Positions 32,733-53,699 of a DNA stretch of 64,000 nt are shown here, in pieces (position 1 is the stretch's first letter; each line of letters starts with the position of its first letter). The DNA comes from Solibacillus sp. FSL H8-0538. GTDB taxonomy: Bacteria; Bacillota; Bacilli; Bacillales_A; Planococcaceae. Location: the NCBI RefSeq assembly GCF_038003525.1, contig NZ_JBBOPI010000001.1, positions 2,969,001-3,033,000 on the forward strand. The letters run 5' to 3'. A program made the translations under genes and the position numbers. The notes beneath the pieces are model-generated. The model had not been told where the DNA came from, searched no databases, and saw only the letters and a program-made list of their open reading frames with translations.

Positions 32733-32927
32733 ATGCCAACAACTAAACTAACAATTGTCCCCGTGTCGCTAGACCCTATCATTGACGAATCTTCATTTAC
32801 AAATTCACCGCAATCTCCTTCTGATCCAAGCTGCGTAATTAAAACAGCTACCGCAGTAATCTCTTTCTTCAATGGCGTAGATGAGCACATCATCCAAACG
32901 ATCGTGAAGGAGCTGAATAATCAATGA
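32733..32927 (+). CDS. IS66 accessory protein (TnpA position)
   Basis: 64 residues from ATG at 32733 with GGGAGGTG upstream. Sequence is Pro/Ser-rich then ends with a helix (V-I-S-F-F-N-G-V-D-E-H-I-I-Q). It overlaps the next gene by 4 bp (ATGA). It occupies the first-gene position of Firmicute IS66 elements; its role in transposition is not defined. Confidence 0.7.
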   Translation: MPTTKLTIVPVSLDPIIDESSFTNSPQSPSDPSCVIKTATAVISFFNGVDEHIIQTIVKELNNQ

Positions 32928-33277
32928 AGCATGATTTTACGAGCGTGCAGAACATCTACATTATTTGCGGTAAGACCGATATGCGTAAAGGTATTGACGG
33001 TCTCGCAACACTCATTCAGGATTCTTTTAAACTTGATCCATATAGTGATTCCATCTTCTTATTTTCTGGAACGAGTAAAGACCGTTATAAATGTTTGTAT
33101 TTTGATGGAGATGGCTTCGCCATGCTTTATAAACGATTAGATAATGGCAAACTGCAATGGCCAAAAGATGAAAAGGAAGTACGTAACCTTTCACAAAAGG
33201 AACTTCGCTGGCTGTTAGAAGGTTTATCGCTTCAGCAGCCAAAAGCGATTGCGAAATCTGCAAAAGGTGTCTTTTAA
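32924..33277 (+). CDS. tnpB: IS66 accessory protein TnpB
   Basis: 117 residues with I-Y-I-I-C-G-K-T-D-M-R-K-G-I-D-G-L-A and L-Y-K-R-L-D-N-G-K-L-Q-W-P, diagnostic for the IS66 Orf2 family. This protein is required along with TnpC for IS66 movement. Its start overlaps the previous stop. Confidence 0.92.
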   Translation: MKHDFTSVQNIYIICGKTDMRKGIDGLATLIQDSFKLDPYSDSIFLFSGTSKDRYKCLYFDGDGFAMLYKRLDNGKLQWPKDEKEVRNLSQKELRWLLEGLSLQQPKAIAKSAKGVF

Positions 33278-33328
33278 ACCCACCTATTAAGGTGGTATAA
33301 TCATCCATAACTTATACTGAACGGAAAT

Positions 33329-34891
33329 GTGGTGAATGATTTGACGAACGTTTCTCCTAAGCAAGAAAATCAAAATGAACGATTAATTCGAATGCTTGAG
33401 CAACAATTAGCTCAGTCAAATCGACAAATCGAAGCGTTGACTGAACAAGTTCGCCAATTAACCAAGGCTTTATACGGTTCAAAATCGGAAAAATCAAAGT
33501 ATAAAGCACCAGACGGACAAGGTTCTTTATTCGAAGACGATCCGTCTTTTAGCGATTCTGAGCAGACAGAAGAACAAAGCACGGCAATGATTACGTATAC
33601 CGTTGTCCGTAAATTACATAAGAAAAAACGGAATGATTCTTTTCGTGACGGGATTGAAATAGAAGAAATTCACCATCATCCTGAAAACACGCAATGTGAC
33701 TGTTGCCTTGGTCAAATGACCGAAGCTGGTACGACCATTGCGCGTGAGGAAGCAAAATTCATTCCGGCTACAATGAAGCGTGTTCAACATATTGAACACG
33801 CTTATGAGTGTAGGCATTGTAAAAAAGATACTACTCAAAAAGCGCAGATGAAACGTGGAAAAGCACCGCAAGCTGCCATTCAACGTAGCATTGCAGGACC
33901 TACTGTTTTAGCAAAACTCATCTACGATAAGTTCATCCAGTACTTACCTCTTTACCGCCAGGTGAAGGAGTGGGACCGATTTGGTCTGCTTACCAATGAC
34001 AAAAACTTATCGAATTGGGTCATTCGTGCAGCAGAAGATTGGCTTCTACCGGTTTATGAGCAGATGAAGCAGACATTAACAGCAAAATCTGTTCTGCATG
34101 TGGACGAAACGTATGCGCAAATTATTAAACGATCAGATGGTAAATCAGGTCAATCGAATGCCTACAATTGGGTGTTCCGAAGCGTGCCAAGCCAAGGACC
34201 AATCATCGTTCTTTTCCAAAGTGCTTTATCGAGAAGTCGTTCTGTATTAGAAAACTTTACAGCTGGCTTTAAAGGAACCGTGATTTGTGATGGATATTCT
34301 GCATACGGCAATCTACCTGATGTCACGTTCGCCAACTGTTGGGCGCATGTACGACGTTATTGGCTGAAAGCTGATAGCAGAAACGGTCAAATTGGTGTGG
34401 ATTACTGTGACCAACTGTATCACTTAGAACGTCAATTTAAGCATCTTTCACCAGGTAAACGACGAAAAGCACGGCAAAAACATTCGAAACCGATTGTAGA
34501 AAAGTTTCTAAAATGGGTAGATGAATCCCCTTTCTTCGGAAAAAATGCCTTGGCAAAAGCTGCCGAATATACATTAAATCGTGTACATGGGTTAAAAGCT
34601 TTTCTGCTCGATGGTCGCATTGAAATCGATAATAATCCAGCTGAAAATGCGATTCGCCCTAATGTGATCGGCCGAAAGAACTGGCTTTTCTCTGTTAGTG
34701 AAGCTGGTGCTAAAGCGAATGCGATCTGCTTAAGTTTGGCTGAAACAGCAAAAGCAAATGGTATCGACTTCTATCAATACCTAGTAACGTTAATGACAGA
34801 GCTGCCGAATTTACCGATCCATCAGCAACCCCAAATTTTAATTAACTACATGCCTTGGTCAAAAAATATCCAAGCCACATGTGCTAAATAG
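33329..34891 (+). CDS. tnpC: IS66-family transposase TnpC
   Basis: 520 residues. An N-terminal leucine-zipper-like coiled coil (about 15-50), a zinc-finger block (C-D-C-C-L-G-Q ... C-R-H-C), and a DDE core: L-H-V-D-E-T-Y, I-C-D-G-Y-S-A-Y and E-I-D-N-N-P-A-E-N-A-I-R. The length is normal for the family and there is no internal stop, so it is likely functional. The start is one of two adjacent GTG codons at 33329 and 33332. Confidence 0.92.
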   Translation: MVNDLTNVSPKQENQNERLIRMLEQQLAQSNRQIEALTEQVRQLTKALYGSKSEKSKYKAPDGQGSLFEDDPSFSDSEQTEEQSTAMITYTVVRKLHKKKRNDSFRDGIEIEEIHHHPENTQCDCCLGQMTEAGTTIAREEAKFIPATMKRVQHIEHAYECRHCKKDTTQKAQMKRGKAPQAAIQRSIAGPTVLAKLIYDKFIQYLPLYRQVKEWDRFGLLTNDKNLSNWVIRAAEDWLLPVYEQMKQTLTAKSVLHVDETYAQIIKRSDGKSGQSNAYNWVFRSVPSQGPIIVLFQSALSRSRSVLENFTAGFKGTVICDGYSAYGNLPDVTFANCWAHVRRYWLKADSRNGQIGVDYCDQLYHLERQFKHLSPGKRRKARQKHSKPIVEKFLKWVDESPFFGKNALAKAAEYTLNRVHGLKAFLLDGRIEIDNNPAENAIRPNVIGRKNWLFSVSEAGAKANAICLSLAETAKANGIDFYQYLVTLMTELPNLPIHQQPQILINYMPWSKNIQATCAK

Positions 34892-34973: not shown

Positions 34974-35243
34974 GATGAAATGCAATTAATACTTGCTGTT
35001 TCTTTTCCAAACCAATCACCTCTATATCCCCCCAACTATTTACAGTTAGGATTATTTTGATATAAAGTGGCTCACATTTCAATTGCGTTAGTGGCTCAGT
35101 TTTAGATTACCAAATACAACCGTCTAAATAAAAGAACTCCAAGAAATGTCATTACATCTCTTGGAGCGATTTTTTGTTTATTCATTATTCCGCCACTGCA
35201 TAACTTCTCACTATTATATAGAGTGAAAAATTATATAAAATAC
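34974..35243. other. Gap between IS66 and the helicase operon with possible IS21 remnant
   Basis: AGTGGCTCACATTTC and AGTGGCTCAGTTTTAG at about 35060-35105 recall the tail of IS21-type elements, whose 3' regions contain such GTGGCTCA units. The call is from memory and weak. A terminator for the helicase operon follows at 35137-35176. Confidence 0.3.
35137..35176. terminator. Rho-independent terminator
   Basis: CTCCAAGAAATGT and ACATCTCTTGGAG form a stem followed by CGATTTTTTG on the plus strand. It lies 68 bp beyond the helicase stop codon. Confidence 0.65.
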
Positions 35244-38200
35244 TTAATTAAAACTTAATACTAAAGAAGCCTTTTCATAGACATTCGGCAAGTCATTTTT
35301 AATCTCATATGGTGAAAAATACATAATAAATTCCTCATCAATTCTTTTTTCGATATTATTTTTCAAGCCTATTTTTTTACCATTCCTTAATTTAATCACC
35401 TCTTCTTGCTCACACCATTCAACAAATGACTTATCATGATGTAACTCAAAGGCTTTTATTAAAGGGAGTAAATATTGATATTTCTTTTCTGAGTCATACT
35501 CACTACTTTCGCCTAAAGTTAAATAATTAAATAACTCCAAACCTAAACTTCTATCTATTTGAACATGCTTCATTTGATTTTGATAATTTCTTAAGCATTT
35601 ATAACAAGACCCATCACAATCATTTGGACAATTTTTCAAAACATGAAATACCTCGTTTTTGATTTCTTCAATACGTTGTCCAGCAACATATGAATATCCA
35701 GCTCCTCCTGATAAATTATCAAAAAGATAAAGGTCTACATTGTAGCTACCATCATCTAGAATTTTTATTCGATGCCCTACAGTCAACTCTTGAGGGTCAA
35801 TATCTAAAACTCTACTTGTAGCTAAAACAAAGGCTTCTCCCAATGTAATAAATGCATCTTTTGCCCACTTCTTATTAAAATCAAAATCAATATGTTTATC
35901 TAAAATTACTCGAACTAAAAGCAAGTCTGTTTTAAAATCATTTCCTAAAAACACATTAATCAGCTTTCCTGTGCAGCGTGAATCCTTATTAGATTGCACT
36001 TTAAAAGGCTTATCATGTTTTGTTTGCTCTTGAAACTGACTTTTTTTAGTTACGGCTTGTATGAATCCACAATCTTCACAAATAGAAAAACCGCTTTCCC
36101 CATCAATTCCTTTATTTGTTACTACTAATTCTTGATCTGCACCATGAGCAGATAGCATTAATTTAGTACCCTGTATAGGTTTGAATTCAAAAGCTTCCTC
36201 GTTATTAGGTATAAGTTGTGGTGTACTAGCATAACTAAAGTTTTGTTTTTTATCACCTTTTTGAACTTCTCTTCCCTTTTCTGGAGAAAACCCTAGAGGA
36301 CGGATATAATGCTTTTCTGATAATTTTTGTTTACAAATTGGACACTTACATACTTTATTTAACTCATCTTTCTTAGAAATATAATTACAATTCAAACAAT
36401 AAAGCATCTTATTTGTTCTCAGATTTACTTCTGCTAAAGGCTGCTCAGGATTTTTGGCAAATGGATTATAAATTCCACCAATTCTATATGTCTTTTTGTT
36501 AACAACTACTTGTCTTCCCGGAGCATATTCTCCTAAAGCGCGATTTAAATCCAGTTGTGGTCGCTGTTCAATTACAACTTTTCTAGTAAATGGATTCCAT
36601 TTTTGAATATACAAGCTAGTTAAGTCACGTGGGAACGCATAAGTCGGTAAAAATCCATAATTAAATAAAAACGATAAAAACTGTGAATCAGGATGCTTTT
36701 CCTTATCATATTCTTCATCCGTCTCCATATGATATTGATTTAACTCCGACTCTATCCCTTCATAGGCTTGCTGAAGGTTCCCCCCTAAGTAATCCGCTGC
36801 ATTTTTTATTATTTCCCATTTAATCTCTAAAGTTGATGCTGCTTCATCTGGAACAATTGAATAAATTTCAGGAAACTCTTTAAACCTTTTATTAATTTGC
36901 TTGTTTAGCCATTGTTCGAAACTATTTAAATCAAATGGTGCATTTGAACCAAAGAAATCTATAGTCTGTCCTAGAGATTCAATGATATTACTTAAAGCTT
37001 GTTCATCATCCTCAGCATACTTATGAAAATAAGTTTGAATCATAAAGGCATTTAAATGTCTCGTAATAATTTTTTTATTATCAATATAAATAAGTGCCTC
37101 TCTTGTATCACCACTAATAATATGCTGCGGATTTTGGAAATAATATGCATCGTGTGGTCCATTTTGAGCATATGTTATAACCGTCGATAAGGAAGAACCT
37201 CTTCGACCTGCTCGACCCGCTCTTTGCTGATAATTTTCTCTTTGTGGTGGAATATTACGAAGTCCAACGGCTGTTAATGACCCTATATCTATCCCGACTT
37301 CCATCGTTGTAGTACAACTCAAGATATCTACAGTCCCCAAACTTTCGTCTAAAATTATATCTTGGAAGGCCATTTCATATTTCTCTGTCGTAGCAAATGC
37401 AACACTCGGATCTTTTTGAGATAGTTGAGCTGTATGTTCTTCTACGGATATATTTGAAATTTTATCTCCCTCTAAAATATCTTTTATAGGTGTTCTCCAA
37501 TAGCCTTTCTCAGCACTTAAAATTTCGCTCTTTGGTAATAAAACATCTAATCCATTTGAAAGGCAAGTTGGACATGTATTGTTCGGATTAACTGCATGGA
37601 TTTGTTTACATTTAGAACAACGATACCATGTATGATTAATTCCATCTTGAATAGCTAAACTATTTAAATTTAAATAGTACTTATCATGTTCATGCTCACA
37701 TAAACGTTTACTAAATAAGACTTCAATCACTTGATTCAGCTCGTCTTCATTTCCAACGTACATCTGAATAATTTTTTTTAACTCGTCAGATATAGAACCT
37801 TTTGTTCTACCCCATTGCTCATCATTTCTATAAAAACCAAATATTTCGCATCTATCTTCGTTTGAAATATCTTTATCGACTGCAACTTCTTCTAGCATTT
37901 CTCGGATAAACAAGATAATTATCTTTTTGAAATCTTCGAGTGATATAATATCCTTTACTGAACGATGAATTGTTTTCACCATAATAGGTACAACAAAACC
38001 TACTGTTGTTTCATATAAAGAATAACCTGGAGAAGCAAGTACATGAACTAATCTAACTTTCAATTCATTATTAATTTTAAAGTTTCTGAACGCTCGACCG
38101 TCAAACTCTATATCTTCGAATTCGTTCGTTCCAAACTCTTCATCTATTAATTCAACGTATTCTTTTACATCTATTAATAAATCTTTTCTATCCGGCTCAT

Positions 38201-40577
38201 TTAACAAGCGCACATTATTTTCATTTATATAGTGTAAAATTGCTGGGTATAACTCTTCTCCAATTGCACCCTCAATATCTAAATTATTCAATTGATATGC
38301 TGCTTTAACTAATAATTGACGTACTACATCTTTTTCAACTTCTTCTGGAATATCTCGAGCTAGACGAGCTGCACGTTGACGACCATCTGAAAAAATTAAT
38401 ACTTTACGTCCTTCATTTATATTATCTTCAATTGACATTGAAGGCGGTTGAATAATAAATTGTTCACGAATAAGGTTGGCGAAGGGTTGCTCTCCCTTTG
38501 TTCGTAAGTCTCTTATATTAAATTTTGCGTTCTTTAAACAACATGGACATTTATCAAATGAGATGACATTAGAATAATCGCTTTTTTTATTACCGCGCTT
38601 TGATTTCCCAATAAATTTATATACTTTTAAATAATCATCTAATTCTTCTCTATTTGGCATATTATCTACTAAGAAACCTGTTTTCACATGTAACCACATG
38701 GCCTCAATATTTTTAAGCGCCTCTTCTCTAGGCTGCTCTACTAAAAAATGAATTTCTGTTAATTTGTCACCAACAATGCCGCTTCCGCTCTCATTCCATA
38801 AAAAGGTTTTTCCAGTATGTTCTTCTGAAATATAGCCTCTCAAATAAACTGATCCACAATAGCGATGTGTCATTAATTCGTATACTTTAGAACCGCATTT
38901 ACATACACTCCTACGATCATCATATAACTCACCTAATATATCCCCTTCTTGATTAGAATCACAATAAGGGTTAATACAGCTATAAGCCCCTGCTAAACCT
39001 CTAAAAAATATATGAACACGTGCTGGAAGTAAGATTTTGTCCTCCTTTTTTGCTGCATTTGCTAATAACAATAAATTACTCACCGCTTTTTTAGCTTTAT
39101 CTAACTCTGCTTCTGGACAAAAGAAGTTTGCTAATTCTTCTAATCTAGTTCCATTACCACTGATTTTTTGAAAAACTAAACTTAAAGGTGGGTAGTTTTC
39201 TAAATGATCGTAAAGGTACTCTTGAAAGTTTTTTAGCTCAGCAGGCGGTTCTGACCAACCTAACGCTTTAAAGCTGTGAGCTAAATCTAATTTAGTCTTT
39301 TTATAATTTTTTATATACTCAATAAATGATTCTGAATTAATATTAGCTAGTATGTCTACATCTTGAATAGATGCCTTCATTGGTGCAACTCTTGATTGTT
39401 GAGTACCTTCAATTAGCTTAAAGTCACGCAAAATAGGCTTCCCAGTCAATTGATAAGCAAATTCTTTGGCTTTAGTTTCATCACCTGGCTTACCTAAACT
39501 TGCCGAAGTTAAAATACAGCGAATTCGATCACGATTAATTCCTAAACGACCTTGTAAACGTCGAATTAGTAATGCCACTTCTGCACCACCTGTTCCACGA
39601 TACATATGAGCTTCATCTAAGATTAAGACAAATTGATTATTTGCATCTTCTTGAAGCCATTTCTTTGTATTTTCCCATATTGAACGTTCAATAGGCCTCA
39701 TTAACATATATTCTAGCATCGAATAATTGGTTACTAATATATCTGGCGGAGTTTGTTGCATTTCATGCCTTGTTAATAGTTCCGCATCTGTCAGGTTTCC
39801 TTTATAAGGCCCTTTTCCTTTTACTTTAGAGTTCACAAATGCCTCGAGATCCTTTGCTGGCCATTTCCCTCTTAACTTCATTTTCTCTACTTCTTTAGGA
39901 TTAGATTTCTCTAACTCCAAATAATAGTTTAAAATATCATTTAAATGATATTTATCTTTTTTATCGGAGTGTGCTCCAGCATAAGGCGTTCGAGATGTAT
40001 ACATACCAAATTGAATATTTCTATCTGCTACTTCATTAAATAGACTCTTTAATTCATCGCTATTAAATAGCCTTCTTAACCTTGTCATCTGATCATTTAC
40101 TAAAGCATTCATAGGATACAGTACTAACGCGCGAACAGCTCTCTTTTTAAATGTTTTAGGAGAAGTTTCAGCTTCTCTATATAATACGTTAAGCATAGGA
40201 TGTAAAAATGATTCTGTTTTACCTGAACCAGTTCCTGTAGAAACAATTAAATCCATATTATCTGTTAAAAATGATTCTAGTGCTTTTTGTTGGTGTACGT
40301 ATGGACGCTGAAAAACACCAACAGAATTTTTTAGCCCTGCCAAATGTGTCATTAACTTTTTGGCTGTTTCAGGAATATCCATTTTGTTATAAGTCTCACC
40401 AATTTCATAAATTGGTGTGGCTTCAATAAATGGCTCTGTAGAAATCGTCCCTGAGCGCTTTAATAAATCCGTACGTTTTCTTTGAGTACTAATTTCACTT
40501 ATTGGATATTGTGTTTCAATATATTCACTTAGTTTTTTATGTAATCTTTTTGTTACTTCATCTATTGTATATTCCAC
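35244..40577 (-). CDS. Large DEAD/DEAH-box helicase with DUF1998-type C-terminus (DruE-like)
   Basis: 1777 residues, the last gene of a four-gene operon. Walker A is T-G-T-G-S-G-K-T (114-121), Walker B is D-E-A-H (about 321), motif III is T-S-A-S-L, and motif VI is Q-R-A-G-R-A-G-R-R-G (about 1118-1127). Three cysteine groups follow or sit between: C-S-K-C...C-P-T-C, C-L-N-C...C-P-I-C, and near 1650 the C-P-N-D-C-D-G-S-C-Y-K-C-L-R-N-Y block after L-S-G-G-A-G-Y, which is the DUF1998/MZB zinc signature. Helicase plus DUF1998 at this size is the hallmark of DruE in Druantia anti-phage systems; DrmA/DrmB of DISARM and DpdJ are relatives. The GTG start lies directly after the previous stop, with GGAGAGAG upstream. 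Expected to move on or unwind DNA. Confidence 0.9.
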   Translation of the reverse strand: MEYTIDEVTKRLHKKLSEYIETQYPISEISTQRKRTDLLKRSGTISTEPFIEATPIYEIGETYNKMDIPETAKKLMTHLAGLKNSVGVFQRPYVHQQKALESFLTDNMDLIVSTGTGSGKTESFLHPMLNVLYREAETSPKTFKKRAVRALVLYPMNALVNDQMTRLRRLFNSDELKSLFNEVADRNIQFGMYTSRTPYAGAHSDKKDKYHLNDILNYYLELEKSNPKEVEKMKLRGKWPAKDLEAFVNSKVKGKGPYKGNLTDAELLTRHEMQQTPPDILVTNYSMLEYMLMRPIERSIWENTKKWLQEDANNQFVLILDEAHMYRGTGGAEVALLIRRLQGRLGINRDRIRCILTSASLGKPGDETKAKEFAYQLTGKPILRDFKLIEGTQQSRVAPMKASIQDVDILANINSESFIEYIKNYKKTKLDLAHSFKALGWSEPPAELKNFQEYLYDHLENYPPLSLVFQKISGNGTRLEELANFFCPEAELDKAKKAVSNLLLLANAAKKEDKILLPARVHIFFRGLAGAYSCINPYCDSNQEGDILGELYDDRRSVCKCGSKVYELMTHRYCGSVYLRGYISEEHTGKTFLWNESGSGIVGDKLTEIHFLVEQPREEALKNIEAMWLHVKTGFLVDNMPNREELDDYLKVYKFIGKSKRGNKKSDYSNVISFDKCPCCLKNAKFNIRDLRTKGEQPFANLIREQFIIQPPSMSIEDNINEGRKVLIFSDGRQRAARLARDIPEEVEKDVVRQLLVKAAYQLNNLDIEGAIGEELYPAILHYINENNVRLLNEPDRKDLLIDVKEYVELIDEEFGTNEFEDIEFDGRAFRNFKINNELKVRLVHVLASPGYSLYETTVGFVVPIMVKTIHRSVKDIISLEDFKKIIILFIREMLEEVAVDKDISNEDRCEIFGFYRNDEQWGRTKGSISDELKKIIQMYVGNEDELNQVIEVLFSKRLCEHEHDKYYLNLNSLAIQDGINHTWYRCSKCKQIHAVNPNNTCPTCLSNGLDVLLPKSEILSAEKGYWRTPIKDILEGDKISNISVEEHTAQLSQKDPSVAFATTEKYEMAFQDIILDESLGTVDILSCTTTMEVGIDIGSLTAVGLRNIPPQRENYQQRAGRAGRRGSSLSTVITYAQNGPHDAYYFQNPQHIISGDTREALIYIDNKKIITRHLNAFMIQTYFHKYAEDDEQALSNIIESLGQTIDFFGSNAPFDLNSFEQWLNKQINKRFKEFPEIYSIVPDEAASTLEIKWEIIKNAADYLGGNLQQAYEGIESELNQYHMETDEEYDKEKHPDSQFLSFLFNYGFLPTYAFPRDLTSLYIQKWNPFTRKVVIEQRPQLDLNRALGEYAPGRQVVVNKKTYRIGGIYNPFAKNPEQPLAEVNLRTNKMLYCLNCNYISKKDELNKVCKCPICKQKLSEKHYIRPLGFSPEKGREVQKGDKKQNFSYASTPQLIPNNEEAFEFKPIQGTKLMLSAHGADQELVVTNKGIDGESGFSICEDCGFIQAVTKKSQFQEQTKHDKPFKVQSNKDSRCTGKLINVFLGNDFKTDLLLVRVILDKHIDFDFNKKWAKDAFITLGEAFVLATSRVLDIDPQELTVGHRIKILDDGSYNVDLYLFDNLSGGAGYSYVAGQRIEEIKNEVFHVLKNCPNDCDGSCYKCLRNYQNQMKHVQIDRSLGLELFNYLTLGESSEYDSEKKYQYLLPLIKAFELHHDKSFVEWCEQEEVIKLRNGKKIGLKNNIEKRIDEEFIMYFSPYEIKNDLPNVYEKASLVLSFN

Positions 40578-41486
40578 CTATACTCTCTCCTTTAAATTTA
40601 ATTTTTCAATGACTACTCGAACATTGTTCAACTGCACTTCATGAGTAATAAATTTTTTAGGGTTTCTCAAACAATTAGGTAACGCGATTAAGTTTAATAA
40701 GCTTATTTCTTCAATTGGTAATTGTCGATTAAAAGAAATTTCAACCAATCTATTTTTTAAGGGTTTAACTATGTAATATTTATCTATTCCATAAACATCC
40801 AAAAGCGCAAAGAAAATTCTTCTATAATTTGATTTAGGAATATGCGTACCATAAATTATCTTTCCTCTTTTTACCGCTATATAAATATCCCTACGTTTAA
40901 AAGCTGTTTCGTGAATTGCAATGAACCATTCACCTTCTTTAATCTTACTAACCATAGTAGTCTTAAAGTGCCTTCCACCAATGAATAAAATATACTCGGC
41001 TATCTCTAAATTCAGAGGCATTATTTTTTTTTCAAAGCTAGGCAAAACATCCGAAATTTCTGATCTATACGCATAATCATCTACTTGCAACACAGGGTAA
41101 TTTGATTGTTTGGCTAAGTAAACCTGAGTTAATCCATAATACGATTCATTTGATTTAAACTCATCAGCACTTATTAATACACTTGTTTCTTCACTTGGAA
41201 ATTGAACTATTCTCGCTGGTAGCAAAGAGTAATATCCATTATCTTGTTTTAAAATCTCTCCTTGTTGATGCATTAATTGCAAGAGCTGCCATGACTTGTT
41301 TTCTTCCCCATTAAAAAAGTTTAAAAATTCCTCACTTTCTTTAGAAAACATTCTGTCTATTATAGGAGTAATTCTTCTATAATGAATTTTTTCTACTTGT
41401 ACCTCTTCAGAAAAACTAAGAATTAGATTTTTCACGTATGTCATATAATAGTTTAATTTTTTCTGTACAATCAATTGATTATGCAT
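40578..41486 (-). CDS. Unknown protein of the helicase operon (third gene)
   Basis: 302 residues from ATG at 41486, chosen because GAGGTGG lies just upstream and the start then falls 10 bp after the previous stop; the frame is open for 24 more codons inside that gene. Residues about 45-100 could form a winged-helix (L-L-Q-L-M-H-Q-Q-G-E-I-L-K-Q-D-N-G-Y-Y), followed by L-L-P-A-R-I-V-Q-F-P. The remainder is mixed alpha/beta with many basic residues (I-P-K-S-N-Y-R-R-I-F-F-A-L). No catalytic motif is evident. The stop abuts the helicase start, so expression is coupled. It may match DruG of Druantia type II by position (inference only). Confidence 0.75.
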   Translation of the reverse strand: MHNQLIVQKKLNYYMTYVKNLILSFSEEVQVEKIHYRRITPIIDRMFSKESEEFLNFFNGEENKSWQLLQLMHQQGEILKQDNGYYSLLPARIVQFPSEETSVLISADEFKSNESYYGLTQVYLAKQSNYPVLQVDDYAYRSEISDVLPSFEKKIMPLNLEIAEYILFIGGRHFKTTMVSKIKEGEWFIAIHETAFKRRDIYIAVKRGKIIYGTHIPKSNYRRIFFALLDVYGIDKYYIVKPLKNRLVEISFNRQLPIEEISLLNLIALPNCLRNPKKFITHEVQLNNVRVVIEKLNLKERV

Positions 41487-41496
41487 TCTACCACCT

Positions 41497-43431
41497 CTAG
41501 AGCCCTTCTGATGGTAAATACTTATTGAATAGTTTAGAAAAAGCCATATATCCATCATCTACACCTATTATGTTGGTATAATAGTATAGCCATTCAACAA
41601 GATCTGTTGTTAATTCAAGGTCTTCTATTTTCTCATTATTAGCTAAATACCATTCTATAAAGTCTTTTTCGAGACCGCGTATATCTTCAAACTTAATAAA
41701 TAAGTCTAGATTTTTTAAATTTAATTGACCCATAGTTAATTCTTGAACTTGCTTTTTTCGGATAGAACTTTGAATAAATTGCTCTGAATTAATAACGGGC
41801 ACTTCACCTAATGTACTTAATAACTCATTTGCATCATCTTCTTTATCTAATGTTAACATCCATAAATTTGGCGTTAAGTTATTTTTAGACCATTTCAGTT
41901 GCTTAAAATACATAGGCAAAGAGTATTGTGCTGTAGTTAAATGTATATTATGAAAGATTAATGACTTAACATTTTCCTCATCTGTATATTGATAAAATAA
42001 AGACTCTAACGCCTTCACTCCAAAAGATTCCAATTCAGGGATCACTGTTAGTACTTCTTCACTAGAAATTGTTTTTGATAAACAGTTTGCAAGTTCCAAC
42101 GAATATTTACCTGTAATGATTAAGGGGAGTTCTCGCATAATAGCAGAAATTATTGTACTAGATAATGCCTTCTTAGAATCCCTCGCATTAAATATCTTCA
42201 AATTCAACTTCAAAATATCAATTACGTCTTCTAATGAATTATGTTGAAAGCCTTTTTCCGAAGAAAAATCAAAATACATAGCATACTCGGACTGTTGTCT
42301 CGAATTTTGAATTCTAGGTTGAAATTCAATCGATGACTTTAATAGTTCATTAGCGTAGACTGTAGTATAGTCATTTTGAAGCCTTTCAATTTTTTGGTGA
42401 AATGTTTGCTCAATTGTACTCAGCAGTTTTTGTGTATTGGATAACTTTTCTTCAGTCTCATTTAATTCTCTAGCTTTCTGACTAAGTAAACTATGATTAC
42501 TTTTTATTTCATCAAGTAATAGCTTATTCTCCTTAGCAAATTTATTATATTCATCTTTGAACTTCTGAGATGTATTGTGCTCTATAATTGTTTGGGTTAG
42601 TTCTAAAGACAACAATTGAGTAGTGTAATGCTTTTGGAACCCATCATCTAAAGTTTTATTATCAATTAGTGTTATTATCCGGTTAAAACGATCGACGATA
42701 TACTTTTCTTCTATTACTTGTGTAGTTAACCATGCACTCAAATTTTGCTTTAATTTCCTAGAAATTTCTCCTAACTCTGTGTTAGCTTTTAAGTGTTGCA
42801 GTACAAATGATAATATTGTTTTATCATCTGCCAAATCAAAATTACCTATAGCGATTTCTGTATTAAATTCATATACAAAAAATGAGCGATTTTTTCTAAT
42901 AAAATCATCAAATATCGTGACAGCATTAATTTGCACTTTGTAATATGGAACAAACCCAATATTTTTCAAACCATATCCAAATTCGTTTTCAATTAGCTTT
43001 ACAGGGCCAATTAAGTATCCATCTTTTGTGCGAAACACCACATCATTTTTAGGTAAATAATCAAGTCTTATACCTTTCCTTAAAAGCCTTATAATTGTTT
43101 CATAATCATTTTCAACGCTATAAAATAGATCAATTAATTCATAAAAAGAATGACTAAATTCTTCCTTACTTAAAATATATTTATTTGAAGTTATACGATC
43201 ACTTTCAAAAGTATTTGATTCACTTAATTGATACAATGCAAAAATTTGTTCTACATTATGCTTATAAGGTACAAATATTTTCCCAGTATTAGGGAAATAC
43301 TCTACATAATCCTCTTCTGATTTTAAAATGGTGAAATTTCCTTCCTCATATATTGCAAAAGGCTTTGCTGCACCATATTCATTACCCTCTCTATATGATC
43401 CCTTGTTAAATAGTTTAACTAATACAATCAT
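41497..43431 (-). CDS. Coiled-coil protein with possible degenerate AAA+ domain (second gene of the helicase operon)
   Basis: 644 residues. The first ~280 residues are mixed alpha/beta. About 285-365 is a coiled coil rich in K, E, L and S. The C-terminal part has the spacing of an AAA+ ATPase: I-I-T-G-K-Y-S-L-E-L-A near 438-448 in the Walker A place, S-L-I-F-H-N-I-H near 490 in the Walker B place, then W-M-L-T-L-D at the sensor-1 place. None of these has the needed residues (no GK[ST], no DE), so it would not hydrolyse ATP. The ATG lies 6 bp after the previous stop, with GAGGTG inside that stop region. Confidence 0.78.
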   Translation of the reverse strand: MIVLVKLFNKGSYREGNEYGAAKPFAIYEEGNFTILKSEEDYVEYFPNTGKIFVPYKHNVEQIFALYQLSESNTFESDRITSNKYILSKEEFSHSFYELIDLFYSVENDYETIIRLLRKGIRLDYLPKNDVVFRTKDGYLIGPVKLIENEFGYGLKNIGFVPYYKVQINAVTIFDDFIRKNRSFFVYEFNTEIAIGNFDLADDKTILSFVLQHLKANTELGEISRKLKQNLSAWLTTQVIEEKYIVDRFNRIITLIDNKTLDDGFQKHYTTQLLSLELTQTIIEHNTSQKFKDEYNKFAKENKLLLDEIKSNHSLLSQKARELNETEEKLSNTQKLLSTIEQTFHQKIERLQNDYTTVYANELLKSSIEFQPRIQNSRQQSEYAMYFDFSSEKGFQHNSLEDVIDILKLNLKIFNARDSKKALSSTIISAIMRELPLIITGKYSLELANCLSKTISSEEVLTVIPELESFGVKALESLFYQYTDEENVKSLIFHNIHLTTAQYSLPMYFKQLKWSKNNLTPNLWMLTLDKEDDANELLSTLGEVPVINSEQFIQSSIRKKQVQELTMGQLNLKNLDLFIKFEDIRGLEKDFIEWYLANNEKIEDLELTTDLVEWLYYYTNIIGVDDGYMAFSKLFNKYLPSEGL

Positions 43432-43437
43432 TTTAAT

Positions 43438-44949
43438 TCACCTCATCTTTTCTAATTCATTAATTAATGGCTCTGGAATATAAATATATTGTTTTCGAAT
43501 CAAACTTAATAAAAATCCCCTATGCTTATAGTCACTTTTTTTAAGTTGATTTTTTAACTGCTCTATTATATGTCTATCATAAATTCTTTTAGGAAATTTT
43601 TTTGCATTCAAACATGTATGTAAAATATTATCCCAATCAATTATGTATTTCGCATTTTCTTGTGATTGTTTTTTTAACTCCCATTTACCAATTCTCGGTA
43701 ACGTTAAAGTTGCAGGTGCTTCTATCGTATGAGTTCCACCAGAAGTAAAGCGATAACAAATTTCAGTTGCATTATGCAAATTGAAAGGGAGTTTAGTAGA
43801 TACTTTAATTTCATCTCTATAAATTATTTGGGAGTCTAATAGAACGTTTTTATCATCAACATTAAAATACTTAGAATTTATAGGATTATTAATAAAATTC
43901 TCTACCTTTCTAACTGTATAAAGTTCTGAAGTTCCTGCTTCAACTATTAACTTATAATCTCCTGGGAAATCCAAAACTAATGAGAAAATCCCCTTTTCGT
44001 TAGGACGAACCCTATTTAATTTCCCCAAAGGTGACAAAATACATATAGCAGGATTTAAAAAGCTAATACTACTTTCTTTACTTGTATATAGAAATTGACA
44101 TTCGTCCTCTAAAATATCATAGGTTGTTCCTAGCTTCTTAAATTTCACAGGAGTTATTAAATCTAAAATACTAGTGGCTGGTAACAACGTATAATTTAAC
44201 TCTTTATAAAACCAATTGACCAATTCTTCATCCAAATTCTCTGGCATAACTAAATCATATAAATATAATTGATTTATTTCATTTATAGAAATGATTTCAA
44301 TACTTCGGGGTATATTTTTTAACTTTAATTTCGTTATAACAAAAAAACGACTCATTAGTGTAAGTTGACGATAATGGACTGATCTATATTCACCTTGTAT
44401 ATTTTTAAATAGTAAAGGTCCCTTTTCGAAAAGCTCATACTTTCCGGATGCATTTAAATCTAATAATTTTTCAAATTTAGGGTTATCACAAGTAATAGTA
44501 TAGGTTTCTTTTAATGGGACATTTACTAAACATTCGTCTATTGAAAGTAATAAACGTTTATTATTCAAAATAAATGAATCCACCTCTTCACAGTAATAAT
44601 TAAAATAAATATCATCAAAAATAACTCTAGGTGTAAATTTATCTTCTATAGACGGAAAACGTAATGAAAAAGAATATCCATTATTAATTGGACAAATTAC
44701 TACGCGAATTCGTTGATTTGCAAGATCCTCTTCTTCAAAATAATTAAATAAAGACGGTGTAGGTACATAAAGTTCACAAAGCTTTTCAATTTCTTTTGCC
44801 ACATAATCTTTATGTCTAAAATGTGGCTTGTTTTTTTTACCTGGATGAAAACTTAGTTTTCCTCCACATACTGGACACTCATAAATTTCATATTTAAGAG
44901 CCTTATTTGCTGATACTAAGTTATTTTCACTATTATATGCATAATGCAT
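43438..44949 (-). CDS. CoiA-like zinc-motif protein (first gene of the helicase operon)
   Basis: 503 residues. The N-terminus has A-N-K-A-L-K-Y-E-I-Y-E-C-P-V-C-G-G-K-L (C25, C28) followed by K-P-H-F-R-H-K (H43, H46), the zinc-binding pattern seen at the start of competence protein CoiA and of nuclease-like proteins in mobile DNA. The remaining 450 residues look beta-rich (for example G-D-Y-K-L-I-V-E-A-G-T-S-E-L-Y) and are unrecognised; the nuclease core of CoiA is not visible. GAGGTGAAG precedes the ATG. As first gene it sets operon expression; a hairpin at 45189-45221 lies upstream. Confidence 0.78.
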   Translation of the reverse strand: MHYAYNSENNLVSANKALKYEIYECPVCGGKLSFHPGKKNKPHFRHKDYVAKEIEKLCELYVPTPSLFNYFEEEDLANQRIRVVICPINNGYSFSLRFPSIEDKFTPRVIFDDIYFNYYCEEVDSFILNNKRLLLSIDECLVNVPLKETYTITCDNPKFEKLLDLNASGKYELFEKGPLLFKNIQGEYRSVHYRQLTLMSRFFVITKLKLKNIPRSIEIISINEINQLYLYDLVMPENLDEELVNWFYKELNYTLLPATSILDLITPVKFKKLGTTYDILEDECQFLYTSKESSISFLNPAICILSPLGKLNRVRPNEKGIFSLVLDFPGDYKLIVEAGTSELYTVRKVENFINNPINSKYFNVDDKNVLLDSQIIYRDEIKVSTKLPFNLHNATEICYRFTSGGTHTIEAPATLTLPRIGKWELKKQSQENAKYIIDWDNILHTCLNAKKFPKRIYDRHIIEQLKNQLKKSDYKHRGFLLSLIRKQYIYIPEPLINELEKMR

Positions 44950-45314: not shown

Positions 45315-45371
45315 CATGGACACACTTACGCTAAGTTAGTAAAATAACCTAAACGAGAGGACGTGTCCGAC

Positions 45372-45601
45372 ATGAGTCAAAAAAAGTATAATCAAGAGTT
45401 CAAACAAACCGTGGTGGAGCTTTATCGCTCTGGCACGCCGGTCAATCAACTATCAAGCGAATATGGTGTATCAGAAGTAACGATTTATAAATGGATTAAA
45501 CTTCATTCTCCCATTGAAGGAACAAATGAGTTAACGGCAGCGGAAGCCGCTGCGATCCAAAAGTAAAATCTACGCTTGAAACAAGAGGTAGAAATCCTAA
45601 A
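45372..45601 (+). pseudogene. IS3 OrfA, 5' part, with nonsense codon
   Basis: From ATG at 45372: helix-turn-helix protein (Y-N-Q-E-F-K-Q-T-V-V-E-L-Y-R-S-G, then Y-G-V-S-E-V-T-I-Y-K-W). TAA at 45564-45566 replaces the glutamate expected in A-A-I-Q-K-E-N-L-R-L-K-Q-E-V-E-I-L. The frame then runs to the IS110 junction at 45601. The last 30 bp of orfA, ending in TAG at 47266-47268, lie beyond the IS110. Confidence 0.8.
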
Positions 45602-45612
45602 CATACTAACAT

Positions 45613-45790
45613 TAGTAGTACAAACCAAGGCCATGGTTTGTGCTACTATTTTTTTATAGTAGAAGTGAAGGAAAGTCGAATAGCCTTTGGGACCATCTGA
45701 GAGTCCGTATTTTAAACCGGCTAACTTCACACCCTTATTTGAATCAGTTTAGTATGTTGGGTCCAAAGAGATCGTGTATAAGAAAGTGGA
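45613..45790 (+). ncRNA. Candidate bridge RNA of the IS110 element
   Basis: The non-coding left end starts with a stable hairpin (arms within 45613-45649, ACAAACC/GGTTTGT). ATAGCCTTT at 45680-45688 is the reverse complement of the right target flank AAAGGCTAT (47238-47246). TTAGTATGTT at 45749-45758 is the reverse complement of AACATACTAA at the left junction (45600-45609), that is core AA plus element end. Both are followed by GGG then ACC or TCC, suggesting two equivalent guide loops (target and donor). Left-side guides were not identified. Length limits are approximate. Confidence 0.55.
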
Positions 45791-45842
45791 ATCAATAAGG
45801 CTATGTGAAGACTTCTATGATTGGCTAAAAAGGAGAAACTAT

Positions 45843-47066
45843 ATGAAACATGTCATTGCGTTAGATGTCAGTAAAGGAAAAAGTACAATTGCAATTTACA
45901 ATGGGTATAAACAATGTGAATTTGAAGGTGAATTCTATCATAAGCGTGTTGATTTCGAACGATTACACCAACGTATCGAAGAAATTACACTACTTGATGG
46001 ACAAGCGCCAGAAATCGTCTTTGAAGCAACGGGTGTCTATTCAAAGCCTATAGAAGCGTTTTTTAAAGATTACGGTTATACATACTACCGCATGAATCCA
46101 CTTGAAGCGAATTTACAAATGGCAAAGATGCGACGTCATAAAACCGATATGAGTGATGCCCATGAACTCGCAAAAACACACTTCAAAATGGAGCACGAAA
46201 CAACGTACATACAAGACGAATATTATGAACAGATGCGCGCATTGACTCGTTATTATGATGAAATCGACGAAGAAATCATTCTACTCAAAAGTAGAATGCA
46301 TGCGATCCTACAACTGAGTTTTCCAGAATTAGAAACGCTTATTACACCTAGTTCGGCACTATTTTTAAATATAGTACAACTGTACCCACATCCAGCACTT
46401 TTACAGGCACATTCGAAAACAATCATTAAAAATCGGTTAAAAGCCAATACGCGAAAAAACCTATCACTAACGCGTGCGGAGAAAAAAGCAATTACATTAT
46501 TAGAAGCAGCTGAAAATAGTTACCCGGCTATTAAGCCGACAGATATTCGATGTGACCAAGTACGAGATTACGCTGCTCGCATTTCCGAATTACTGGAAAA
46601 GAAGGATTCACTTGTAAAGCAAATGGTGGAATTGTCACAAGGACGAAAAGAATATATAGTATTCCGATCGATTCCTGGCATTGGCGATTCAACGGCGTGC
46701 AGATTAATTGGCGAAATCGGTGACATCCACCGCTTTCAAAATGCGAAACAACTGAACGCTTACGCAGGCATTGATATTATGCGATACCAATCAGGCAATA
46801 CGCAGTACAGAGATCGCATTAATAAACGTGGAAACAAACATTTACGGAAGATTTTATATTTCATGGTATGCGCCATGCTTATGGCAAAAGGAAAACCGAA
46901 TCATTTTGTGGATTATTACTATAAATTAAAAACGCAACCTCAGAGGAAGCCCCATAAGGTTGCGATTGTCGCCTGTATCAATAAGTTTCTGAAAGTGACA
47001 TTTCAGTTAATAACACAAGGCATATTGTACGATTATGAGTCCGCACTACCAGCTCAGAAATCGTAA
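45843..47066 (+). CDS. IS110-family transposase (DEDD recombinase)
   Basis: 407 residues from ATG at 45843 with AAAAGGAGAAACT upstream; the frame is open earlier but that region overlaps the RNA-coding part. N-terminal RuvC-like DEDD domain: A-L-D-V-S-K-G-K-S, F-E-A-T-G-V-Y, and K-T-D-M-S-D-A-H-E-L-A. The C-terminal Tnp20 domain has F-R-S-I-P-G-I-G-D-S-T-A and Y-A-G-I-D followed by Y-Q-S-G-N, where the serine is the likely nucleophile. The gene is intact. IS110 enzymes use a structured bridge RNA to choose donor and target. Confidence 0.92.
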   Translation: MKHVIALDVSKGKSTIAIYNGYKQCEFEGEFYHKRVDFERLHQRIEEITLLDGQAPEIVFEATGVYSKPIEAFFKDYGYTYYRMNPLEANLQMAKMRRHKTDMSDAHELAKTHFKMEHETTYIQDEYYEQMRALTRYYDEIDEEIILLKSRMHAILQLSFPELETLITPSSALFLNIVQLYPHPALLQAHSKTIIKNRLKANTRKNLSLTRAEKKAITLLEAAENSYPAIKPTDIRCDQVRDYAARISELLEKKDSLVKQMVELSQGRKEYIVFRSIPGIGDSTACRLIGEIGDIHRFQNAKQLNAYAGIDIMRYQSGNTQYRDRINKRGNKHLRKILYFMVCAMLMAKGKPNHFVDYYYKLKTQPQRKPHKVAIVACINKFLKVTFQLITQGILYDYESALPAQKS

Positions 47067-47144
47067 TCAAATGTAATTAAACTATATCATACTGGCCTTT
47101 CGAAAAAAATAAAAATCGTTAGGTCATTTTGGCGTATCTAAAAA

Positions 47145-47190
47145 ATGTAAGTGAAGTGTGGAGGGATATCCCTCCACACTTCACTTACAT
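47145..47190. repeat. 46-bp perfect palindrome in the IS110 right end
   Basis: Centred on GATATC at 47165-47170, with arms containing GTAAGTGAAGTGTGGAGG and its complement. Read on the minus strand TTTTTAGA follows, so it can terminate transcription entering from the right. On the plus side AAAAACAT follows. Confidence 0.7.
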
Positions 47191-47240
47191 AAAAACATAA
47201 TCTATTTTTAATAATTAGGTTGACTAATCGTAAGGAAAAA

Positions 47241-48142
47241 GGCTATGACCATATTCGCGCAAAAATAGAAGACCAAGAACTCATCGATCACATTGAAAAA
47301 GAAAGCGAGCATCAGCCTGTTCAACTGATGTGTCGCGTATAAAGATACCTAAAAGTACGTATTATCAATCGTTTCATAAGAAGCCAAACAGCTATCATGT
47401 CGCCAATGAGAAGCTTTTAGTACGCATTCGTGCCATCCACGCAGACAGTAGTGGGCGGTACGGTGCGCCAAAGATTTTCGCCATTTTAAATCAAGAAGGC
47501 TATACCGGCAGTATTGATCGCGTTCAGCGTATTATGAAACACGCAGGCATCCGTTCGAACATTGTAAAAAAGTACAAACCGACCTCATCTAGTGGTCATG
47601 TGGAAGAACGTGAAAACGTAATCGAACAGGACTTTACAACCGAAACCATCAACGAAAAATGGGTAGCGGATATTACGTATATCCACACCGTTCAAGATGG
47701 CTGGTGCTATTTGGCGTCGGTACAAGATTTACACACAAAAAAGATTGTCGGCTATAAATTTGGTCGCCGTATGACGGTAGACCTTGTTTTAGACGCGCTC
47801 GAAAACGCCGTGATGGCCCAGCAACCCGCATCAGGCTTAATTTTGCATACCGATTTAGGGACGCAATATACAAGCGAAGATTTTCGTAAAAAGCTCGAGC
47901 AGCATGGCATCACGCCATCATACAGTCGCAAAGGTTGTCCGTATGATAATGCGTGCATCGAATCGTTCCATGCGACATTGAAAAAAGAAGAAGTTTACCG
48001 CACACGCTACGCCAATTTTGAAGCAGCTCGCATGGCTTTATTCCGCTACATTGAAGGCTGGTACAACCGCAAGCGAATTCATGGTAGCATCGGCTATTTA
48101 TCGCCAGATGCATTTGAAAAAATCTGCCGTGCCGCAGCGTAA
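47241..48142 (+). pseudogene. IS3 OrfB transposase, frameshifted
   Basis: The orfB frame enters G-Y-D-H-I-R-A-K-I-E-D-Q-E-L and reaches a stop at 47339-47341 after L-M-C-R-V. Restoring one T there gives R-V-L-K-I-P-K-S-T-Y-Y and continues in the long frame from 47330 to 48142. The retroviral-type DDE core is complete: A-D-I-T-Y-I-H, H-T-D-L-G-T-Q-Y and N-A-C-I-E-S-F-H. The 47330 frame alone gives 270 residues lacking part of the N-terminus. Confidence 0.82.
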
Positions 48143-51734: not shown

Positions 51735-51929
51735 CCTATAGTCCTCCTAAATTTCAAGTAATTACATAATAGCAAGAAAACATTTCTAACCTCAAATAAA
51801 AAGAAATAAAATTCATAATAATCAATTTTATATTAAAAATAATACTTATTTACAATAAGATTAATTATCTTAAATACGGTATAATTTTAAAGTCTCCAAA
51901 CTGCTCCACAAGCACACATGGAGGACAAC

Positions 51930-53186
51930 ATGGCAATTACAATCAAAAAAGAAACACTTAAAAATGGAACCACATCATATAAATTCGTCGTTAATTTAGG
52001 AATTCCTGAAGGTGAAACTAAACCTCGAATCGTTACTCGACGAGGCTTCACATCTACAAAAGAAGCAAAGCAAGAGCTAAAAAAATTACAGGCTCAAGCT
52101 GCACTTGGCATCTATCCTGAAAAGAAAGTGCGCGGTAGCAATGAAGCGGCGAGCTTGCAAACAGTAACTACAGTTGAAGTTGCACTCGCTTCTTCAACAA
52201 ATAAAACAATGACATATCAAGAAGTGTTTGAGATTTGGAAGGAAGCATACGAGCTGAAAGTCGAATCAACAACTGTCGACAAAACAATGGGCTATTTTAG
52301 AAATCACATCCTGCCTGAATTCGGTACGCGTCCAGTCGATTCAATTACGTACCTAGACTGCAAGCAGCTTATGACGAAGCTGACAAAAAAGCTGAAATCA
52401 AGTCGCAAAATTCTTTTCTACTTCAGTCGTATTTTAAAAGAGGCTGTACAGATGGATCTGATTCCAAAAAATCCGATGACAGGCATTGAGCTTCCTTCCG
52501 AAAAGAAGAATCAGTTTGAGCATGAAAATGAGGTTTTTAAAGAGAACTACTATGATCGTGAGGAATTAGCGGAATTTCTAGCATGCTGCAAGAACGATTT
52601 ATCGCAGCTGAAATATACGGCATTTCATTTGCTAGCTCATAGCGGTCTACGTAAAGGTGAGCTTTTTACGCTTACCTAGGCGGATATTAATTTCGAAGCG
52701 GCAGTGTTGAGGGTTAATAAGGCTGTAGGCTATTCGACGACACGAGGGCTTCATATTAAGAACACAAAGACGTCAAAACCGCGCGTTGTGGATTTGGATG
52801 AAGAAACCCTTAGCTTATTAAATGATTGGGCGGAAATGCAGCGTTTAGAGCTTTCAAAAGCGCGGCTGAAAGTTAAACCTGATAGCAAGCAGCTGTTATT
52901 TCCAAATATCTATAATGAGTTGATGCATCCCTCGAAAACGAGTAGATGGATTCGCGATGTACAGAAGAAACATAACCTTCGCGAAATTTCTACCCATGGA
53001 CTGCGTCATACGCATTGTTCCTTACTTTTTGAATCTGGCTTCTTTACCCCAGCACAAGTAATGGAGCGATTAGGCCATACTGATTTAGAAACAACGATGA
53101 AGATCTATACGCACGTGACTCGTCAATCGCTCGCGAGCAGTACAAAAAATTATTTAAGCTTTATTAAAAATGATGATAACGAATAA
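51930..53186 (+). pseudogene. int: Tyrosine integrase with an in-frame amber codon
   Basis: From ATG at 51930 (GGAGG upstream), 418 codons: an arm-type DNA-binding N-terminus, a SAM-like core-binding domain, and a catalytic domain. TAG at 52677-52679 (codon 250) replaces the tryptophan expected after L-F-T-L-T, one base from TGG. The frame continues to A-D-I-N-F-E-A-A-V and on. The first catalytic Arg (H-S-G-L-R-K-G-E) lies before the stop; H-G-L-R-H-T-H and the nucleophile in M-K-I-Y-T-H lie after it. So the two halves cannot work alone. It lies beside the 3' end of ssrA, a common integration target for such enzymes. Confidence 0.88.
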
Positions 53187-53342: not shown

Positions 53343-53388
53343 TATATGGAGACGGCGGGAGTCGAACCCGCGTCCAGAAACTCCAATA
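53343..53388 (-). other. Proximal attachment site within the ssrA 3' end (candidate)
   Basis: TATATGGAGACGGCGGGAGT and the following bases to CTCCAA match the decayed copy at 20478-20522 in the same orientation. The amber-interrupted integrase gene lies 157 bp away on the inner side. Crossover point not defined. Confidence 0.5.
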
Positions 53389-53699
53389 CTCCAGCTTCTA
53401 CGCGTGTAGTTTACCTATTTGCGATTCGCGTGGCATTATGCCGGTAAACAGGCGTCCTGCACGCTAGCTTGGAAATCTCTTGCCGGTGACTCAAGCAGCA
53501 CCACCGACCGTATCCCACTAAAGTTGGGCCCTACGTTATGCACATGGGCGATGCATAGGCAGAGCGCTTACGAGCTTACGCTGCGAAAGCTAAGTTTTGT
53601 TGTTTGCCAGTTATTATATAACTTCCGTTGATGACGAAGACGAGACCTCCGACGCGCGACTAGAGCTTGAACCATCCCTGTCGAATCCGTAACGTCCCC
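53347..53699 (-). ncRNA. ssrA: Transfer-messenger RNA (tmRNA)
   Basis: The 5' end GGGGGACGTTACGGATTCGA near 53699 pairs with the 3' GTCTCC(A) at 53347 to make the alanine-type acceptor stem; GGGTTCGACTCCC is the T arm. The tag frame at 53576-53611 reads ACT then G-K-Q-Q-N-L-A-F-A-A and TAA, the degradation signal added to stalled proteins. CCA is not encoded in full after the discriminator A, so it must be added. SmpB, its protein partner, is encoded at 54601. The 3' end doubles as the likely integration site of the adjacent integrase. Confidence 0.95.

What the first reader, a model, noticed from the sequence alone, without database searches (positions are those of the whole stretch)
35244..44949. 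Four-gene operon with a DruE-like helicase and unfamiliar partners: candidate new anti-phage system
Seen: four minus-strand genes with gaps of 6, 10 and 0 bp: a CoiA-like Cys/His protein (503 aa), a coiled-coil protein (644 aa), a 302-aa protein, and a 1777-aa DEAH helicase ending in a DUF1998 zinc block. Known: helicase-DUF1998 proteins of this size mark Druantia (DruE) and relate to DISARM DrmA/DrmB. Inference: the operon lies in an IS-rich segment next to an integrase and resembles a defence locus. Druantia type II is druM-druF-druG-druE; here there is no methylase and a CoiA-like protein takes the first place, so it may be a subtype or a new system.
Basis: partly seen in the sequence, partly recalled or inferred. 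Interest (0 to 1): 0.85.

Follow-up and report, generated by a model that had tools for sequence, protein, structure and literature searches.

The report
DruA-less Druantia type I operon
The four genes are druB, druC, druD and druE of the known Druantia type I anti-phage system, in a lineage that does without the fifth gene druA: a variant of a known defence system, not a new one.

Summary
In detail: four co-directional genes with gaps of 6, 10 and 0 bp. PADLOC profiles name the genes, in order, DruB, DruC, DruD and DruE of Druantia type I; the helicase scores 1970 bits against DruE1, 713 against the next type. This is not a recent accident: of 15 genomes with a full-length DruE1 searched for DruA, 13 have none; 10 of 11 loci of this Bacilli lineage keep all four genes together and form one supported DruE clade; two pairwise comparisons show purifying selection on all four genes. 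PADLOC's type I profiles already cover this lineage. DruC ends in a predicted AAA+ domain without nucleotide-binding motifs. Only DruE keeps a recognisable active site, its helicase ATPase. Best guess: DruB/C/D recognise infection and license DruE, which acts on single-strand-containing phage DNA. Identity near certain, mechanism inferred.

The parts
43438..44949 (-). druB (503 aa): CoiA-like N-terminal zinc domain (invariant Cys25, Cys28, His46, Cys58), beta-rich body with predicted tandem Ig/fibronectin-like sandwiches at about 259-426, helical C-terminus
   Evidence: PADLOC DruB1 116 bits; DUF7828 above cut-off; hhalign to E. coli DruB E 4.8e-15 over the first 262 residues; invariants in 15 rows; AlphaFold2 model pLDDT 80.1; Ig-like matches of modest Z, about 8
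41497..43431 (-). druC (644 aa): N-terminal beta domain, coiled coil, C-terminal AAA+ fold lacking the nucleotide-binding motifs
   Evidence: PADLOC DruC1 159 bits; model pLDDT 75.5, pTM 0.43; RavA Z 12.2, rmsd 4.5, 224 residues; no P-loop in 22 of 22 DruC proteins
40578..41486 (-). druD (302 aa; mechanical ORF 326 aa starts at 41558)
   Evidence: PADLOC DruD1 89 bits; hhalign to E. coli DruD E 2.7e-10; start from alignment and ribosome-binding site
35244..40577 (-). druE (1777 aa, GTG start): SF2 YprA-family helicase with MZB zinc domain and a C-terminal region without conserved catalytic residues
   Evidence: PADLOC DruE1 1970 bits over 2-1770; Pfam DEAD, Helicase_C, MZB; 36% identical to E. 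coli DruE; motifs intact in 20 rows
35136..35167 (-). possible rho-independent terminator of the operon
   Evidence: 14-pair stem and T-rich tail; number of such sites in the region not above chance
53347..53699 (-). tmRNA gene (ssrA), one edge of the variable segment that holds the operon
   Evidence: ARAGORN; the closest relative has the operon downstream of ssrA in the same relative orientation
51918..53186 (+). tyrosine integrase in two ORFs (broken) next to ssrA
   Evidence: Phage_int_SAM_3 and Phage_integrase
45363..48142 (+). IS3-type element pieces with an IS110-type transposase between them, upstream of druB
   Evidence: HTH_Tnp_1, Transposase_20 with DEDD_Tnp_IS110, rve

Best explanation
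This is a druBCDE operon of the Druantia type I lineage that naturally lacks druA. Shown by sequence: the four genes are homologues of DruB, DruC, DruD and DruE; druA is not found; this form is an old, stable lineage in Bacilli and its genes are under purifying selection. Inferred: it defends against phages. DruE is an ATP-driven SF2 helicase that loads on phage DNA with single-stranded stretches and remodels or blocks it; DruB (zinc finger plus Ig-like sandwiches) and DruD recognise an infection cue; DruC (coiled coil plus an AAA+ domain that has lost ATP binding) is a non-catalytic scaffold that couples them to DruE. No nuclease active site is recognisable in the operon, so destruction of phage DNA would need an unrecognised site or a host nuclease.
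For: Identity: all four PADLOC type I families; E. coli DruB, DruD, DruE; DruC profile against DruC-position proteins of other loci, Prob 98, E 1.9e-13; a same-lineage relative fits PDLC00004, 00007 and 00011 along their full length at 1016, 1279 and 617 bits. DruA absence: PF14236 in 2 of 15 genomes, 0 in the own genome; 0 of 2 Peptoniphilus genomes. Stability: with (all four genes in 10 of 11 loci; 11-row clade, SH-aLRT 100, all without DruA). Function: dN/dS 0.29, 0.14, 0.22, 0.09 for B, C, D, E against the closest relative and 0.22, 0.15, 0.20, 0.08 in a second pair (NG86). Defence context: in 6 of 10 relatives a defence gene was found among the neighbours sampled. Mechanism: intact DruE motifs, AAA+ fold without P-loop, Ig-like region in DruB, and by analogy Druantia III, where DruE engages 3'-tailed DNA and the Ig-bearing DruH is the likely sensor (PMC13192584, passages).
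Against: DruA, part of type I as published (DruABCDE; passage in PMC13316683), is missing. DruC against the single E. coli DruC was not significant (Prob 1.1, E 0.05); homology rests on the multi-sequence comparison. No phage assay for any druA-less locus is known to me. 4 of 10 relatives showed no defence gene among the neighbours sampled. The DruB Ig-like match is of middling Z, and DruD was not folded. Who senses and who acts is analogy.
Confidence: 0.8

Rival explanations
1. A decayed type I locus: druA was lost when IS elements inserted upstream, and the rest is no longer functional.
For: IS3 and IS110 elements lie right upstream of druB, where druA stands in E. coli; the neighbouring integrase is broken; two relatives carry damaged copies (druB missing in G924, short druC in G786).
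Against: druA is absent in the whole lineage, not just here; all four ORFs are intact; dN/dS is well below 1 in both pairs tested; about 350 bp between druB and the IS holds no druA remnant.
Confidence: 0.08
2. A separate subtype of Druantia: the druA-less lineage works by a different route from druABCDE, so that druA is replaced rather than merely dispensable.
For: The lineage is a clade (SH-aLRT 100); its DruB, DruC and DruD need PADLOC profiles of their own; E. coli DruC is not recognised directly.
Against: Gene order and all four families are shared with type I, and no common extra gene takes druA's place in the ten relatives.
Confidence: 0.3
3. A DNA-repair operon around a YprA/MrfA-like helicase rather than a defence system.
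For: YprA-family helicases also serve repair (PMC12458937, section 5); the MZB domain is shared with MrfA.
Against: DruE1 profile match over the full length; sparse presence, 9 of 261 genomes of the family; mobile or defence neighbours in several relatives; carriage on plasmids and on contigs classed as viral.
Confidence: 0.03

Closest known systems
Druantia type I (druABCDE; E. coli loci read here: NZ_CP132983.1 and NZ_CP180702.1)
   Same: Order B-C-D-E; DruE 36% identical over nearly its whole length; DruB and DruD homologous by profile comparison; DruC in the same position and homologous through intermediate sequences.
   Different: No druA in the operon or found in the genome. DruB, DruC and DruD are so diverged that PADLOC covers them with separate profiles.
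Druantia type II (druMFGE)
   Same: A DruE helicase; type II is reported to encode an inactivated CnuB (McrB-like) homologue with a coiled coil (PMC12458937, passages), which resembles DruC here in architecture.
   Different: No methylase; the helicase scores 713 bits on the best DruE2 profile against 1970 on DruE1. No type II protein was compared directly.
Druantia type III (druHE)
   Same: DruE family; DruH has Ig-like domains and is the likely sensor (PMC13192584, passages), as I suggest for DruB.
   Different: Two genes; type III DruE has an active PLD nuclease, whereas type I DruE is reported to have an inactivated Vsr domain (PMC12458937, passage), in line with the lack of conserved catalytic residues in the C-terminus here.

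Membership tests
Druantia (any type) | DruE: large SF2 YprA-family helicase with MZB zinc domain | tested here: met
   DruE1 1970 bits; DEAD, Helicase_C and MZB above cut-off; motifs intact
Druantia type I | DruE of type I | tested here: met
   DruE1 1970 bits against DruE2 713, DruE4 662, DruE3 599
Druantia type I | DruB | tested here: met
   PDLC00004 116 bits; E. coli DruB by hhalign E 4.8e-15
Druantia type I | DruC | tested here: met
   PDLC00007 159 bits; profile against other loci E 1.9e-13; direct comparison with the single E. coli DruC not significant
Druantia type I | DruD | tested here: met
   PDLC00011 89 bits; E. coli DruD by hhalign E 2.7e-10
Druantia type I | DruA (DUF4338, PF14236) | tested here: not met
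   0 matches in the own genome with PF14236, in a search that found it in 2 of the 15 genomes searched; also 0 with PDLC00001, but that search rang in no control. The operon is therefore filed as a druA-less variant, not as a canonical type I member.
Druantia type I | Anti-phage activity | not testable with these tools
Druantia type II | DruM methylase, DruF, DruG with a type II DruE | tested here: not met
   None of the four proteins hits DruM, DruF or DruG profiles at E 1 or better among the families listed (for the helicase the best 25 of 39 were shown); DruE is of type I
CoCoNuT/McrB-like GTPase (for DruC) | Homology to McrB/CnuB | tested here: inconclusive
   AAA+ fold with RavA on top (Z 12.2); McrB is not among the rows shown, which excludes nothing

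The most novel reading that the evidence does not exclude
druBCDE is a self-sufficient Druantia subtype that defends without DruA and without a nuclease of its own: one helicase motor, a dead AAA+ scaffold and a fast-diverging Ig-like recognition protein, stopping phage replication by occupying or remodelling DNA rather than cutting it.
Probability: 0.2. Interest if true: 0.5.

Novelty: new variant of a known kind. Interest (0 to 1): 0.27.

Why it matters
Type I Druantia is the least understood type in the papers I could read. A natural druA-less lineage suggests that druA is an accessory part, and reduces the system to four genes of which only one has a recognisable active site. That makes a direct question testable: can a helicase with non-catalytic partners stop a phage? 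It also warns that annotation rules which require druA may miss these loci; whether PADLOC or DefenseFinder rules do so was not checked. In the library searched, no paper holds the terms DruBCDE, 'lacking/without/lacks DruA', 'Druantia I-B' or 'Druantia type I-B'; that covers open-licence PubMed Central papers only.

Tried and rejected
Type II or a new system: rejected on PADLOC scores. Solved-structure sequence searches with DruB, DruC and DruD profiles: DruB none; DruC only chance-level coiled-coil matches (best E 0.062); DruD best E 0.22. A second copy of the tmRNA 3' end as the far attachment site: a 19-base pattern with up to 3 mismatches found only the tmRNA itself in the window, so the far edge of the island is not placed. 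NCBIfam gave no family at its cut-off for any of the four proteins. McrB or CnuB does not appear among the fold matches of DruC, which shows nothing. Direct DruC against E. coli DruC not significant. Other-type DruE loci (L085-L088) gave no DruA, DruB, DruC or DruD match to my profiles. A protein-level test of DruC against type II or IV partners was not made. DruD was not folded (two jobs, used on DruC and DruB). The DruE tree is a 'quick' tree with support values of one kind; whether druA-less rows are one clade is open (2 changes with all 29 rows, AU p 0.159 for one clade; 1 change, support 86, without the three haloarchaeal rows). Left out of the tree: L046 (near copy), L048, L073-L082 (partial or more distant). 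The neighbour scans used 20 proteins and single further ones, chosen from longer lists, so 'no defence gene' in 4 of 10 relatives is not a full survey. dN/dS from NG86; YN00 failed for several pairs and synonymous change is near saturation against the closest relative.
Full report
Check of the observation. The four ORFs exist at the stated places. The third gene is 302 aa if started at the ATG that relatives share and that follows an AGGTGG stretch; the gaps are then 6, 10 and 0 bp. A hairpin with a T-rich tail follows druE, in a region where such sites are no more frequent than chance. The operon lies between an IS66 element (32924-34891) and pieces of an IS3-type element around an IS110-type transposase (45363-48142); further right are an integrase in two ORFs and tmRNA.

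What the genes are. PADLOC profiles: 503 aa = DruB1 (116 bits, E 5.2e-34), 644 aa = DruC1 (159 bits, E 3.7e-47), 302/326 aa = DruD1 (89 bits, E 9.2e-26), 1777 aa = DruE1 (1970 bits, E 0, residues 2-1770). Other DruE types score far lower (713, 662 and 599 bits for the best DruE2, DruE4 and DruE3). Against E. coli type I proteins read from an annotated locus: DruE 36% identical, DruB E 4.8e-15 over the N-terminal half, DruD E 2.7e-10. DruC against the single E. coli DruC is not significant (E 0.05, Prob 1.1), but its profile matches a seven-row profile of DruC-position proteins from other loci at E 1.9e-13.

DruA is missing. No PF14236 match in the own genome, in a search of 15 genomes that found it in two others (G330, G563). 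An earlier search with PDLC00001 was also empty but rang in none of its controls, so it proves little. In the sample, 13 of 15 genomes with a full-length DruE1 have no DruA, nor do both Peptoniphilus genomes; of the eight virus records searched, four have DruA. All six plasmid records with a DruE match carry DruA nearby (annotation; phmmer for the unannotated one), and so do the two E. coli loci read out of 69 E. coli genomes with a match.

The lineage. Full-length DruE1 was found in 9 of 261 genomes of the window's family, 7 of 398 of a class draw at E 1e-200 and 3 of 398 of a phylum draw (the E = 0 rows of 17 with E up to 1e-100); the draws share genomes. Eleven loci, the window included, form one clade in a quick maximum-likelihood tree of 29 DruE proteins (SH-aLRT 100), all without DruA. 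Ten of them have B, C, D and E together; G924 lacks druB next to an integrase gene and has a short druC, and G786 has a short druC. Six further druA-less rows (two virus contigs, two Peptoniphilus, G355, G627) form a second supported clade. With all rows the label needs two changes, but one druA-less clade is not rejected (AU p 0.159); without haloarchaea it needs one. So druA absence is old and inherited; the direction, gain or loss, is not shown. PADLOC profiles PDLC00004, 00007 and 00011 match the B, C and D proteins of G489 over their full length at 1016, 1279 and 617 bits, whereas E. coli proteins match 00005, 00006 and 00009. Sequences of this lineage were thus already in the hands of PADLOC's authors as type I. 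I found no text that remarks on the missing druA (open-licence library only).

Selection. Against the closest relative (G840, DruE 78% identical) NG86 dN/dS is 0.29 (B), 0.14 (C), 0.22 (D), 0.09 (E), with synonymous change near saturation; in the closer pair G489/G629 0.22, 0.15, 0.20, 0.08. All four genes are kept, DruE most strictly. DruB, C and D diverge much faster than DruE: 19-21% against 49% identity to the G489 proteins. DruH likewise diverges faster than DruE in type III (PMC13192584, passage).

Context. The window's operon lies on the 3' side of ssrA, with a broken integrase between; the closest relative G840 has its operon on the 3' side of ssrA too, in the same relative orientation, and in both an AcrB-type permease gene lies beyond the operon (for the maps), with a GmrSD restriction gene in between in G840. 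Among the ten relatives, defence genes were found among the neighbours sampled in six: G775 (Gabija GajA and GajB, Wadjet JetC and JetD), G489 and G629 (type I restriction-modification), G970 (Cas8c/Csd1-type and Cas7 proteins, a type IV-like restriction enzyme), G840 (GmrSD), G924 (candidate PDC-S60). In G977 a rolling-circle Rep gene is upstream. In G739, G786 and G902 the neighbours tested were other genes, apart from a WYL-type regulator upstream of the G786 operon.

Parts and mechanism. DruE keeps Walker A, DEAH and motif VI in 20 of 20 aligned rows apart from small variations; in its last 108 residues only H1671, R1676, L1682, L1763 and P1764 are identical in at least 18 of 20 rows, no catalytic set, consistent with the inactivated Vsr domain reported for type I DruE (PMC12458937, passage). 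DruC (model pLDDT 75.5, pTM 0.43) has an N-terminal beta domain, a coiled coil and a C-terminal domain like RavA (Z 12.2, rmsd 4.5, 224 residues). The P-loop is absent in 22 of 22 DruC proteins checked. [quoted passage not shown] my result puts such a dead AAA+ domain in DruC of type I. DruB (pLDDT 80.1) has a zinc site (Cys25, Cys28, His46, Cys58 invariant in 15 rows) and Ig/fibronectin-like sandwiches around 259-426 (Z about 8 with small domains such as filamin; middling). DruA, where present, is DUF4338, which one paper calls GNAT-like (PMC10853773, passage). In Druantia III, DruE engages 3'-tailed DNA and DruH, with three Ig-like domains, is the likely sensor (PMC13192584, passages). From this I infer DruB and perhaps DruD as recognition parts, DruC as scaffold, DruE as motor. 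None of these roles is shown here.

Papers. PMC12458937: abstract, sections 5 and 26, passages. PMC13192584, PMC8565338, PMC13316683, PMC10853773, PMC7251935, PMC12774648, PMC11090510 and PMC11811056: passages only. Doron et al. 2018: not held; what I say of it is from other papers' passages or recalled.

Verdict. A druA-less variant of Druantia type I; ordinary as a defence operon, mildly interesting as a natural four-gene version.

Noticed in passing
window 48432-49409 (-): 325-aa protein matching PADLOC's candidate defence family PDC-M36A (E 3.1e-22), between the IS elements and the integrase.
   Followed up: partly
window 50262-50825 and 50889-51734 (-): Neighbouring genes: one with an ArsR-type helix-turn-helix and weak CasR/Csa3 matches, one with a histidine-kinase-type ATPase domain, both below Pfam cut-offs; possibly a small signalling pair in the island.
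   Followed up: no
window 28370-31396 (+): AcrB-type (RND) permease in two ORFs of 199 and 744 aa matching different parts of one Pfam model; it looks broken.
   Followed up: no
window 51918-53186 (+): Integrase beside tmRNA is split in two ORFs, so the island is probably no longer mobile by its own enzyme; no second copy of the tmRNA end was found in the window.
   Followed up: partly
L038 (G775): DruBCDE directly beside Gabija (GajA, GajB) and Wadjet (JetC, JetD) genes: three systems in under 20 kb.
   Followed up: no
L041:17186-18028 (G627): In the second druA-less clade a D12-class adenine DNA methyltransferase directly follows druE; G355 (L031:17012-17851) has a gene of similar size in the same place, not tested.
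   Followed up: no
L067 and L068 (IMG/VR contigs): DruA-less BCDE operons with a longer, 924-aa DruC on contigs classed as viral.
   Followed up: partly
L044-L046 and L049 (haloarchaeal plasmids): druA lies upstream of the dru genes and points away from them (L044-L046), or lies downstream on the other strand (L049), next to hypothetical genes and, in L044-L046, a gene annotated as FtsK translocase.
   Followed up: no
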